A stretch of DNA of 20,127 bases from IMG/VR virus record IMGVR_UViG_3300022839_000117, positions 1 to 20,127 of that record. One strand, 5' to 3'. Below are positions 2,317 through 17,339 of the stretch, piece by piece. Made by a program: the position numbers and the translations under genes. Below the pieces are notes generated by a model. That model had not been told where the DNA came from, did no database searches, and worked only from the letters and a program-made list of their open reading frames with translations. This stretch comes from a virus. How positions within the stretch are numbered: the stretch's first letter is position 1; every line of letters begins with the position of its first letter.

Positions 2317-3539
2317 GTGATGTTCCCCGCTATTACGTTGTCCAGAACGGCAGCGCGATAGTGTCCGATGCCGGGAGCCGCTGCGGCGGCCAATGCGGTG
2401 TCTGTAGCCGTAAGAACCTGAACGCCGTTCAGGTACAGCTTGATCACAGAACCGACCACATCAACACGGGCCAGCTTTGGAAGTCCGCCTGCGAACGTGC
2501 CCGTCACCAGTGTTGTGGACACGCCAGCCACCCGCTTAGAAATTGCGATTGCCGTCCCTGTTACCGTGGCGCGGTAGTAGTTATTCGCGTCCGCATACCG
2601 CAAGAACAGGCGCGCGGTATCCAATCCCACCGACACAATATCGGCCTGCACGTATTGGTCTGCGGCATAGGTTCCGGTCCCAGTGTAGTCAGCATAGGAA
2701 CTAGACCCGGTATCGGTATTGACCAACTGCCCCGAGACATAGTTGAAATGGTTTGGCGATCCGTTTGATGCGCGTAGGGTCCAGAAACCGCTGGTGACGA
2801 TGTGCCCCGAGCCTGCGCCCGCGTCTGTAATCACAGGCGTGTAGGTCGGACCGCTTGGCGATGCCTCTGTCGTTCGCTCAACAGGCAAGGACGGTGCGCC
2901 CCGACCTGCGGCACTTACGGCCCGCGTGCGGAAGTAGTGCAGCGTGTCTGGCAGCAGACCCGTGATCGCCTGTGGGTCCGCAATGTCAAAAACGATGACC
3001 CAGTCCTCAAGATTGGTGCTGTACTCAACCTCGTAGGACGTGATCGGGTCACTGCCAGCCGCCGGTGCCGCCGCGCGATCAACGCTGACGCTGGTCGGGC
3101 CTGTCACCGTAACGGCTGGCGCTGCCATCTGCGCAGGTGGCGATCCAGCGAAAGCATACTGCGCACTATCAACGGCAGACGCATTTTCGTCCGCATCATC
3201 AAGCATTAAGTGCATGTAGTGGTCCCCCACCGGAACGATGCTAAAATCAACCGCCCGCGCGCTGGTGCCTGCCGTGACTGTAAACGAACCGCTGGCCTCT
3301 CCACCACCCGCTTTGACCTGCGCCGCCAAGCGCGATGCGTTGTTGTCCACGAGGTAGTAGATCGTGCCGACCTCATTGACCGTAAGCGATGCGGTGCCCG
3401 TCTCTGGGTCATAGGCGGACATGGTGATGGCGGGAAGTAGCGGAGCCGGAGGGGGCCTCACTCCGCCCATACCGTTGCCGCTCAACAGGCCCCCAGACAT
3501 CGGTGATCGGGAAAGCGCGCTTGCGCCAAACGCGTTCAT
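2313..3539 (-). CDS. Multidomain tail-associated adhesin with Ig-like, fibronectin type III and LamG/ConA-like domains
   Basis: This 408-residue protein has a Gly/Ser/Pro-rich N-terminus (1-38), then a beta-sandwich segment (about 40-135, with YDPETGTASLTVNEVGTIYY). A fibronectin type III domain follows at about 139-226, with SYEVEYSTNLEDWVIVF, LPDTLHYFRTRAVSAAGRG and the closing VERTTEAS. The C-terminal part (about 232-408) looks like a concanavalin/LamG fold of the 'profile of a film of sugar' type: ADQYVQADIVSVG, ARLFLRYADANNYYRATV, LYLNGVQVLTATDT. These folds bind carbohydrate or cell surfaces in phage fibres. Its ATG overlaps the preceding TGA by one base (TGATG), and its stop overlaps the tailspike start. 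Likely part of the host-recognition apparatus; the exact virion position is not deducible. Confidence 0.75.
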   Translation of the reverse strand: MNAFGASALSRSPMSGGLLSGNGMGGVRPPPAPLLPAITMSAYDPETGTASLTVNEVGTIYYLVDNNASRLAAQVKAGGGEASGSFTVTAGTSARAVDFSIVPVGDHYMHLMLDDADENASAVDSAQYAFAGSPPAQMAAPAVTVTGPTSVSVDRAAAPAAGSDPITSYEVEYSTNLEDWVIVFDIADPQAITGLLPDTLHYFRTRAVSAAGRGAPSLPVERTTEASPSGPTYTPVITDAGAGSGHIVTSGFWTLRASNGSPNHFNYVSGQLVNTDTGSSSYADYTGTGTYAADQYVQADIVSVGLDTARLFLRYADANNYYRATVTGTAIAISKRVAGVSTTLVTGTFAGGLPKLARVDVVGSVIKLYLNGVQVLTATDTALAAAAAPGIGHYRAAVLDNVIAGNIT

Positions 3540-15627: not shown

Positions 15628-15828
15628 ATGGACGGTGTTTTGGGAATTTTAGGCGTAATCGCCTTGATCGCGGGGGCCGCTCTAGCAATAGCTGGGGTTG
15701 CTGGGCTTGGGGCGTTTAACGTCTACCAAGGGTTTGCATTGATAGGGTCTGGCATTGGTATGCTGGCGTTTTCTGAAGTCATCAAAACGCTAAAGGAGAT
15801 ACGCGACAAAATGCCTTCGCCGAAATAG
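15628..15828 (+). CDS. Small two-helix membrane protein encoded antisense to the late operon (putative moron)
   Basis: ATG at 15628 follows GGAG by about eight bases. The 66-residue product begins MDGVLGILGVIALIAGAALA and continues IAGVAGLGAFNVYQGFALIG with two Gly/Ala-rich hydrophobic helices (about 2-26 and 34-50), then a basic cytoplasmic-type tail (IKTLKEIRDKMPSPK). It lies between the second chaperone frame and the tape measure gene but on the opposite strand, so late transcripts run antisense across it. Independent orientation, promoter and interruption of the otherwise continuous tail operon are the marks of a moron, often a lysogenic conversion or superinfection-exclusion gene. The family is not recognised and function is inference. 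Confidence 0.7.
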   Translation: MDGVLGILGVIALIAGAALAIAGVAGLGAFNVYQGFALIGSGIGMLAFSEVIKTLKEIRDKMPSPK

Positions 15829-15899
15829 ACACCCCGCTAACGGGATGCCTTTGGCCTATCCACTGGCGCGATTGCCAGCGCGTTAGTGCCGTTTTCGCG
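15829..15899. other. Convergent spacer between moron and chaperone frame, several overlapping short stems
   Basis: The 71 bases contain CCCG-CTAA-CGGG (15833-15844) and CTGGC-GCGATT-GCCAG (15863-15878). CCGTTT pairs with AAACGG across the chaperone stop (15889-15907), followed on the plus strand by a pyrimidine-rich CTTCTTTTT (15912-15920). None is a textbook terminator, but the last could stop plus-strand moron transcripts. Confidence 0.35.
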
Positions 15900-16319
15900 C
15901 TAAACGGGCGGCTTCTTTTTACCGCCCATGCCCGCCTTGATCTTTTCGGAGACAAGCCGCCGCTCCAGCGCAATGCCGGGATCGTCGTCCCTGTCGTCAT
16001 AAACAGGTGCAACGGCCATTGCCTCTTTGCCGTGGTGGTGCCCGTCGATATAGGCGTTGGACATTTGGCGGATCATGCGGGCTTCGTCTGGCTCTAGGCG
16101 CAACCCAAGCTGGCGATCCATGGCGTCAATCTCCAGCCACGAATGGGCGCGCAGATTGCCCATGCTGTCCGCATCACACCAGCCCAGATCGTGGGACAGC
16201 CATTCAATGAAATGCTCGCCCGCGTCGATATCCGGCAGTCCGTTGGGGATGCCCTCTTTGGCGTAGAGTGCCGCGCGGCTGGTTTTCCAGTCATCCGGCT
16301 TTGAATGAAGGAAACCCAT
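15900..16319 (-). CDS. Tail assembly chaperone, second frame (lambda T-like extension made by -1 frameshift)
   Basis: Read alone from the ATG at 16319, this frame gives 139 residues (MGFLHSKPDDWKTSRAALYA onward). However, no Shine-Dalgarno precedes the ATG, and the frame is open upstream to 16388, crossing the end of the first chaperone gene in the -1 register. Entered at the slippery site 16379-16385, it reads GEQGQLAQEWRSRLTLYARQ before the MGFLHS segment, a hydrophilic stretch that looks like natural protein. The expected fusion is about 302 residues. In lambda-like tails the G and GT products bind the tape measure protein and recruit tube protein during assembly. The C-terminus ends in KAGMGGKKKPPV. 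Confidence 0.75.
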   Translation of the reverse strand: MGFLHSKPDDWKTSRAALYAKEGIPNGLPDIDAGEHFIEWLSHDLGWCDADSMGNLRAHSWLEIDAMDRQLGLRLEPDEARMIRQMSNAYIDGHHHGKEAMAVAPVYDDRDDDPGIALERRLVSEKIKAGMGGKKKPPV

Positions 16320-16336
16320 TTGCCGCGCGTAGAGGG

Positions 16337-16807
16337 TTAGGCGGCTTCGCCACTCTTGCGCCAGTTGGCCTTGTTCGCCAAAAAAGCATCAATGCCCTCA
16401 TGAAGCCACTCGGCCTTTGCCAGCAGTTCAAGCGCGGCGTCCGGCGTGTATTCCAGCAATTCAACCTTGCCGTCAGGCTTGCCGCTTGGGATGTGCGTCA
16501 CGTTGCGCCAGCCTGTCAGCATTTCCGCGTAAAACTTGGCGTTGGATGCCGTCACCTTCGCGGCGCGGTCTGCAATCTCATCCTCGGAATAGTCTTCGAT
16601 GCGCCGTTCTTTCTTGCCCTTCGGCTGTAGCGCCGCGATCCGCTTTGCGTGCCGGATGCCTGCGCGCTTGCCTGCGGGGCTTTCGGTGCCGATGAAATCC
16701 ATCTCGATTGGCTGGCCTTCGTGGTATAGCTGTTCGCCGTCATATTCGACGTGGTAGGTTGCGGCGTTCTGAGCGTCACGGGCGGGGTTGATACGTGCAA
16801 AATCCAT
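16337..16807 (-). CDS. Tail assembly chaperone, first frame (lambda G-like)
   Basis: The 156-residue product begins MDFARINPARDAQNAATYHV and includes a charged middle (AKRIAALQPKGKKERRIEDY, with RIEDYSEDEIADRAAKV) and a helical end (LELLAKAEWLHEGIDAFLAN). AAGGA lies eight bases before the ATG. It sits between the major tail protein and the tape measure gene, the invariant place for the chaperone pair of siphoviruses. The codons Ala-Phe-Leu at 141-143 contain the T-TTT-TTG heptamer, so a minority of ribosomes should continue into the 15900 frame. Function is by position, size and the frameshift architecture rather than strong sequence motif. Confidence 0.8.
   Translation of the reverse strand: MDFARINPARDAQNAATYHVEYDGEQLYHEGQPIEMDFIGTESPAGKRAGIRHAKRIAALQPKGKKERRIEDYSEDEIADRAAKVTASNAKFYAEMLTGWRNVTHIPSGKPDGKVELLEYTPDAALELLAKAEWLHEGIDAFLANKANWRKSGEAA
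16379..16385 (-). promoter_or_regulatory. Programmed -1 ribosomal frameshift site (T TTT TTG)
   Basis: The message reads GCT TTT TTG in the frame of the first chaperone gene, giving a perfect X-XXY-YYZ heptamer. Slipping back one base enters the frame of the second chaperone gene, which is open here because its nearest upstream stop (TGA, 16389-16391) is four bases before the heptamer. The shift occurs at codon 143 of 156, close to the C-terminus as in lambda G-GT. Confidence 0.85.
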
Positions 16808-16838
16808 TGTGTTTGTCCTTGGGGTTCTGGTTCATTGC

Positions 16839-16888
16839 GGGGTGCGACGGTAGAACCATCCGCGCCACACCCCTAGCCGCCGAAGCGG
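16839..16888 (-). other. Two hairpins between major tail gene and chaperone gene
   Basis: Immediately after the tail-protein stop the message forms CCGC-TTCG-GCGG (16877-16888), a stable UUCG tetraloop hairpin. A longer imperfect stem follows, in which GGGGTG pairs with CACCCC (16868-16873 with 16839-16844) and two mismatches lie inside. There is no T-run. These may protect the upstream message or attenuate downstream transcription. Confidence 0.5.
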
Positions 16889-16889
16889 A

Positions 16890-17339
16890 TTACGGGTTGG
16901 GGATAACCACCCAATCAGTTGTGACGCGCATTGTGGAGGATGCGGTCACAACGTCATCAACGCCGCTGACGTTGGGCATGAACATCATGACCAGTGCGCG
17001 CGCCCAGTATTCGGTTCCGTCCTGCAATGTGATGCAGATCGAATAGGATTCGTCGCTGATCAGCGCGGCCTGCATCAGGATCTGGCCTGCATCGTCGGGG
17101 TCCAGAGCCATAGCTGGCGAAATGGTCCCGTTGTTGTAGCTGCCCTTGCCGTACTTGGTCATACGATCTGCCAGCGGGTTGTGTGTGACCTCGGCATACT
17201 CGCGGCCAAAGAAGTCGCCGATGTTGGTCACTTCGCCGACGATGATGCCGGTGAGTGCGCCGTAGCCCGCTGCGTCGAATGTCGCGGGAGCTCCAGCTAC
17301 GATGGACAGGGATGCGCCTGCCGCTGTTTGGTAAGCCAT
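16890..17339 (-). CDS. Major tail tube protein
   Basis: The 149-residue protein lies directly before the chaperone pair, the usual position of the siphovirus tube subunit. It begins MAYQTAAGASLSIVAGAPAT, has a Gly/Ala-rich N-terminus with a beta-type core (ALTGIIVGEVTNIGDFFGRE, YAEVTHNPLADRMTKYGKGS), then SYSICITLQDGTEYWARALV and a terminal VTTDWVVIPNP. This matches lambda gpV/TTP-like proteins in size and in the 'E.THNPL.D....Y..G..NNG' pattern seen in this group. AAAGGA lies about nine bases before the ATG. The spacer on each side carries a hairpin, consistent with separate control of a product needed in many copies. Confidence 0.85.
   Translation of the reverse strand: MAYQTAAGASLSIVAGAPATFDAAGYGALTGIIVGEVTNIGDFFGREYAEVTHNPLADRMTKYGKGSYNNGTISPAMALDPDDAGQILMQAALISDESYSICITLQDGTEYWARALVMMFMPNVSGVDDVVTASSTMRVTTDWVVIPNP

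What the first reader, a model, noticed from the sequence alone, without database searches (positions are those of the whole stretch)
16317..16391. Textbook T-TTT-TTG -1 frameshift joins the two tail chaperone frames
The heptamer TTTTTTG at 16379-16385 is in the zero frame of the first chaperone gene (codons GCT TTT TTG). The -1 frame becomes open only four bases upstream (TGA at 16389-16391) and stays open through the second frame. The second frame's own ATG has no Shine-Dalgarno. All signals agree that the second protein exists as a fusion of about 302 residues, made by a minority of ribosomes. The mechanism is known from lambda G-GT; this instance should be annotated as ribosomal slippage, not as two genes.
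Basis: partly seen in the sequence, partly recalled or inferred. Interest (0 to 1): 0.65.

Follow-up and report, generated by a model that had tools for sequence, protein, structure and literature searches.

The report
Phage tail chaperone made by frameshift
This virus very probably makes its long tail-building helper protein by letting a few ribosomes slip back one base on a run of six T's, the same trick that phages lambda and P2 use, so the two open frames are one slippage gene; the finding is sound but ordinary.

Summary
T_TTT_TTG lies at 16385-16379 (- strand), in frame, 42 nt before the stop of a 156-aa phrog_313 tail assembly chaperone (G). The -1 frame opens after TGA 16391-16389 and runs 159 codons (T), giving a 302-aa fusion. 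The pair sits between the major tail protein and tape measure genes, as in lambda G/GT.

Comparative evidence is strong. GCTTTTTTGG is invariant in five of five close relatives. Homologous T frames elsewhere follow other in-frame heptamers (A_AAT_TTT, T_TTT_TTC, G_GGA_AAG, G_GGA_AAC). In several, conserved T residues precede any possible start codon. One contig is a natural chimera that keeps this G and heptamer with a foreign T, still in the -1 frame. Synonymous shuffling gives such a site in 0.5% of trials. TTTTTTG itself is the published phage P2 E/E+E' site.

Corrections: the main junction peptide should read AFL-GEQ, not AFF-GEQ. No conserved stimulator was found, and this heptamer is not among the efficient ones in E. 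coli, so a low shift rate is expected.

Verdict: new member of a known kind, to be annotated as ribosomal slippage. A conserved hairpin leader before G, without Rfam match, may be newer than the frameshift.

The parts
16337..16807 (-). G: tail assembly chaperone, zero frame, 156 aa, stop TAA 16339-16337
   Evidence: phrog_313 'Tail assembly chaperone' E 2.5e-7; predicted fold resembles viral proteins annotated tail assembly / tape measure chaperone, E 4e-6 to 1e-2; between major tail protein and tape measure genes
16379..16385 (-). Slippery heptamer T_TTT_TTG in frame with G
   Evidence: invariant in five of five close relatives
16389..16391 (-). TGA, last -1 frame stop before the heptamer
   Evidence: same place (6 nt from codon start to heptamer) in all five relatives
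15900..16379 (-). T: -1 frame extension, 159 codons plus stop TAG, C-terminal part of the 302-aa G-T fusion
   Evidence: phrog_18915 E 4e-10; homologous T frames in other phages
16317..16319 (-). First ATG of the T frame, no Shine-Dalgarno; probably not used
   Evidence: -1.1 kcal/mol; absent in L012
16808..16891 (-). Leader between major tail protein stop and G ATG: hairpin CCGC-UUCG-GCGG, then an 11-bp hairpin whose loop UGGUUC can pair with GAACCA before the ribosome site; not part of the frameshift itself
   Evidence: no Rfam match

Best explanation
A lambda G/GT-type tail assembly chaperone gene of a siphophage-like virus. Most ribosomes translate G and stop at 16337 (156 aa). A minority, with tRNA-Phe on UUU and tRNA-Leu on UUG in the P and A sites, re-pair one base back on UUU UUU, continue in the -1 frame through T and make a 302-aa G-T fusion. 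By analogy with lambda, G and the G part of G-T coat the tape measure protein and the T part recruits tail tube subunits. Shown here: site, frame, conservation, homologues, absence of a usable T start in several relatives, gene order. Inferred: the slippage itself, its low frequency, and the roles of the two products.
For: In-frame heptamer in a 0/-1 overlap; 0.5% by chance; GCTTTTTTGG invariant in five relatives while only 45 of 107 conserved-residue codons are identical in DNA over the gene; homologous T frames behind six other heptamer types or variants at the corresponding place; conserved T residues before any start codon in L010, L012, L018, L030; the L012 chimera keeps heptamer and -1 frame with a foreign T; gene order and families; P2 precedent for the same heptamer.
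Against: No experiment. No conserved stimulator. U_UUU_UUG is not in the most efficient class in E. coli. Two related records lack a canonical heptamer.
Confidence: 0.95

Rival explanations
1. Two separate genes: T is translated on its own from ATG 16319, by reinitiation 17 nt after the stop of G.
For: An ATG exists there and four of five close relatives keep it.
Against: No Shine-Dalgarno (-1.1 kcal/mol); ATG absent in L012; other homologues have no start for 33-48 codons while the preceding T residues are conserved; heptamer conservation would be unexplained.
Confidence: 0.03
2. Transcriptional slippage: RNA polymerase adds or drops a U on the T6 run, and normal ribosomes read the altered mRNA into T.
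For: T6 is a homopolymer run.
Against: Six is short for efficient slippage (usually nine or more A/T; own knowledge). Homologues use G_GGA_AAC, G_GGA_AAG and A_AAT_TTT, which lack such runs but all allow tandem tRNA slippage.
Confidence: 0.02
3. Sequencing or assembly error: an indel in the T run splits one continuous gene.
For: Homopolymer runs are error-prone and the source is a viral metagenome contig.
Against: Four other contigs share the same T6 and frame relation; distant homologues from sequenced isolates have the same two-frame layout with other heptamers.
Confidence: 0.01

Closest known systems
Phage P2 E / E+E' (-1 frameshift at TTTTTTG; PMC3091744)
   Same: Identical heptamer, chaperone gene pair between tube and tape measure genes, no downstream structure detected
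   Different: P2 is a myophage; E is 91 aa and E+E' 142 aa, against 156 and 302 here; sequence homology between the proteins was not tested directly
Phage lambda G / G-T (-1 frameshift; review PMC5009743)
   Same: Gene order, 0/-1 overlap, canonical heptamer near the end of G, long C-terminal extension
   Different: Heptamer differs (lambda G_GGA_AAG, own knowledge); ratio and role shown in lambda (30:1), only inferred here
Salicola phage CGphi29 and Paracoccus phage Pkon1 chaperone pairs
   Same: T homologous to the window's T (28-34% identity), -1 frame, canonical heptamer at the corresponding place
   Different: Heptamers A_AAT_TTT and G_GGA_AAG; deposited tables show two hypothetical proteins and no joined feature
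phrog_313 tail assembly chaperone family
   Same: G matches at E 2.5e-7; the GGGAAAC-type G and Dinoroseobacter phage R5C also match
   Different: Window G is only distantly related to the GGGAAAC-type G (22-24% identity)

Membership tests
lambda G/GT-type frameshifted tail assembly chaperone | Pair lies between major tail protein and tape measure genes | tested here: met
   phrog_158 major tail protein 17339-16890 and tape measure 15563-9222 flank it
lambda G/GT-type frameshifted tail assembly chaperone | Second frame is -1 to the first, overlaps it and is open past its stop | tested here: met
lambda G/GT-type frameshifted tail assembly chaperone | Canonical X_XXY_YYZ heptamer in the zero frame inside the overlap | tested here: met
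   T_TTT_TTG at 16385-16379
lambda G/GT-type frameshifted tail assembly chaperone | Heptamer and frame relation conserved in relatives | tested here: met
   5 of 5 close relatives; 24 of 26 related records with some canonical heptamer
lambda G/GT-type frameshifted tail assembly chaperone | Second frame lacks its own translation start signals | tested here: met
lambda G/GT-type frameshifted tail assembly chaperone | First protein belongs to a tail assembly chaperone family | tested here: met
   phrog_313 E 2.5e-7; fold matches among viral chaperones with a medium-confidence model (pLDDT 65); no PDB match
lambda G/GT-type frameshifted tail assembly chaperone | Both products made, in a fixed ratio needed for tail assembly | not testable with these tools
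   needs reporter assay, proteomics and mutants
Bacterial -1 frameshift signals with stimulators (dnaX, IS911 type) | Upstream SD or downstream hairpin/pseudoknot conserved with the heptamer | tested here: not met
   SD-like sequence varies among relatives; downstream fold energies not below shuffles and no two-sided changes in the tested stem; an alternative consensus fold in five sequences is not decisive

The most novel reading that the evidence does not exclude
The chaperone cassette (G, slippery site, T) is exchanged between phages as a unit, and T domains are also exchanged behind an unchanged slippery site. A conserved two-hairpin leader, possibly with a loop-downstream pseudoknot, stays in place before G and would be an undescribed cis-acting RNA that sets chaperone translation relative to tube and tape measure.
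Probability: 0.35. Interest if true: 0.45.

Novelty: new member of a known kind. Interest (0 to 1): 0.2.

Why it matters
For annotation: G and T should be one slippage gene with two products. Several deposited relatives split the pair into two hypothetical proteins, start T dozens of codons too late (Pkon1 p49) or leave T out (Rhizobium phage RHph_TM3_3_9). For biology: it adds T_TTT_TTG to the heptamers that serve one family of homologous T domains, where several different heptamers now appear at one homologous joint. The L012 chimera is natural evidence that T works as a fused, exchangeable domain.

Tried and rejected
Downstream stimulatory RNA structure: folds of 41-99 nt were not better than shuffles and the tested stem had no two-sided changes; an RNAalifold consensus had three two-sided pairs but also several mismatches, not accepted. 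Upstream SD-like GAGGG: present in two of five relatives only. Stand-alone T, transcriptional slippage and sequencing error: see rivals. The first heptamer scan missed sites within a few nt of the stop because of its search bound; Dinoroseobacter phage R5C (GGGAAAC, 3 nt before the stop) was recovered. A genome-contig search with G found no relative, and the leader pattern there gave a single Lentilactobacillus hit that was not followed up, so no host was assigned. PDB sequence and fold searches with G gave nothing significant. The T model was too poor to use (pLDDT 47). MAFFT could not align the leader hairpins across types, so no covariance model was built; pairs were counted on a hand alignment, which favours pairing by construction.

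Full report
What was checked. The window is a 20,127-base virus record whose tail genes run on the - strand: head morphogenesis, tail completion, tail terminator, major tail protein (17339-16890), G (16807-16337), T (to 15900), tape measure (15563-9222). TTTTTTG lies at 16385-16379 and G is read GCT TTT TTG, so the heptamer is X_XXY_YYZ in frame. The -1 frame is closed by TGA 16391-16389 and then open for 159 codons; the fusion is 302 aa. All coordinates in the finding are right. One detail is not: after tandem slippage the A-site codon has already been read as Leu, so the main junction is AFL-GEQGQLAQ; AFF would be a minor form (established mechanism, own knowledge).

Chance. In the listed - strand genes of the window, P(TTT|Phe) x P(TTG|Leu) is 0.066. 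Synonymous randomisation of the whole G gene gave a canonical in-frame heptamer in an open -1 overlap in 0.51% of 20,000 trials. Alone this is suggestive; conservation makes it firm.

Close relatives. Four IMG/VR contigs encode G at 86-94% identity. GCTTTTTTGG is invariant in all five sequences, and in codons 141-156 8 of 9 conserved-residue codons are identical in DNA against 45 of 107 over the gene. This is as expected for a slippery site followed by dual-coding sequence.

Distant relatives. tblastn with T found Salicola phage CGphi29 and Paracoccus phage Pkon1. Both have G and T in 0/-1 frames with A_AAT_TTT and G_GGA_AAG at the corresponding places. Loci fetched through the tape measure and major tail proteins add G_GGA_AAC (IMG/VR contigs, a Rhizobium phage, Dinoroseobacter phage R5C), T_TTT_TTC (two Vibrio phages), A_AAT_TTC (Bacteriophage sp. 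438212), A_AAT_TTT (Acinetobacter phage Effie) and G_GGA_AAG (Pseudomonas phages). In all, 24 of 26 records examined this way have a canonical site; Vibrio phage P23 and Marinobacter phage PS3 do not.

Is T ever made alone? In the window the first T start is ATG 16319 with no Shine-Dalgarno (-1.1 kcal/mol). In L012 that ATG is gone and the first start is 35 codons in; in L010, L018 and L030 it is 47, 48 and 33 codons in, although homology to the window's T starts within a few codons of the heptamer. Only a fusion yields those residues.

A natural recombinant. Contig IMGVR_UViG_3300012170_000295 (L003/L012) is about 91% identical in DNA to L021-type phages up to the start of G, window-like across G and the heptamer (81%), and L021-like again from about the stop of G (74%). 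Its T is 72-74% identical to T's that elsewhere follow G_GGA_AAC. The crossover lies in the overlap downstream of the heptamer and keeps the -1 frame. Conversely L016 has a tape measure 89% identical to the window's but a different G/T pair, and L017 has G/T 87-89% identical but a tape measure 47% identical. So chaperone cassette and tape measure reassort.

Stimulators. None is conserved: the SD-like GAGGG 9 nt upstream occurs in two of five, and downstream folds are ordinary. This matches phage P2, which uses the same TTTTTTG without a detected structure (PMC3091744). In E. coli tests U_UUU_UUG is not in the most efficient class (PMC4066793), so a low shift rate is expected; other phage chaperone sites gave 6-7% in reporters (PMC3711429) and lambda's product ratio is about 30:1 (PMC5009743).

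Membership. Every lambda G/GT feature testable in sequence is met; the protein ratio and its need in assembly could not be tested. The P2 precedent for the heptamer makes this a new member of a known kind, not a new variant.

Outside the given coordinates. The 84 nt between the major tail protein stop and G's ATG form two hairpins, CCGC-UUCG-GCGG and an 11-bp stem. The same arrangement precedes both the TTTTTTG and the GGGAAAC types of G, in 14 distinct leaders including the window's. The second stem varies strongly in sequence yet pairs in every type (81 of 81 counted cells, 7 of 9 pairs with two-sided changes, hand alignment); fold z-scores are -0.8 in the window and -1.5 to -3.2 in five other types. 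Its loop (UGGUUC) is complementary to GAACCA just before the ribosome site, and the two vary together (GGUUUC/GAAACC, GUGGUUUG/CAAACCAC, UUGGUUU/AAACCAA). This suggests a pseudoknot near the ribosome site; shuffling support is modest (0.02 to 0.27 per sequence). Rfam has no match. This is a lead, not a result.

Noticed in passing
16808-16891 (- strand); 14 distinct leaders among L011-L055, L072, L099, L162: Conserved two-hairpin leader before G, with a strongly covarying second stem and a loop complementary to GAACCA near the ribosome site (possible pseudoknot); no Rfam match.
   Followed up: partly
15826-15860 (- strand); L011, L013, L016, L017, L018, L021: Conserved 9-bp hairpin GGCAUCCCG-UUAG-CGGGGUGUC at the T / tape measure boundary, holding the T stop codon in its loop in most relatives, with A-U to G-C changes on both sides in L011 and L016; 76 nt here are 93% identical to L018 although T is about 31% identical.
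   Followed up: partly
15628-15828 (+ strand); L021 group, L048: A 66-aa hydrophobic, probably membrane protein is encoded antisense to the tail operon between T and the tape measure gene; relatives at 59% and 43% identity sit at the same place in other contigs, while L017 lacks it. No PHROG match.
   Followed up: partly
L003/L012 (IMGVR_UViG_3300012170_000295) 664-1588: Natural chimera: window-type G and heptamer joined to a T of the GGGAAAC-type phages, crossover inside the frameshift overlap.
   Followed up: yes
L009, L010, L028-L031, L036 (deposited phage records): Deposited annotation shows the chaperone pair as separate proteins, starts T late (Pkon1 p49 at 3160, the -1 frame begins at 3019) or omits T (L029), although an in-frame heptamer is present.
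   Followed up: partly
L034 3501-4423 (Vibrio phage P23): G and T lie in 0/-1 frames without a canonical heptamer; the listed T start is a TTG with no obvious ribosome site, so a non-canonical shift is possible.
   Followed up: no
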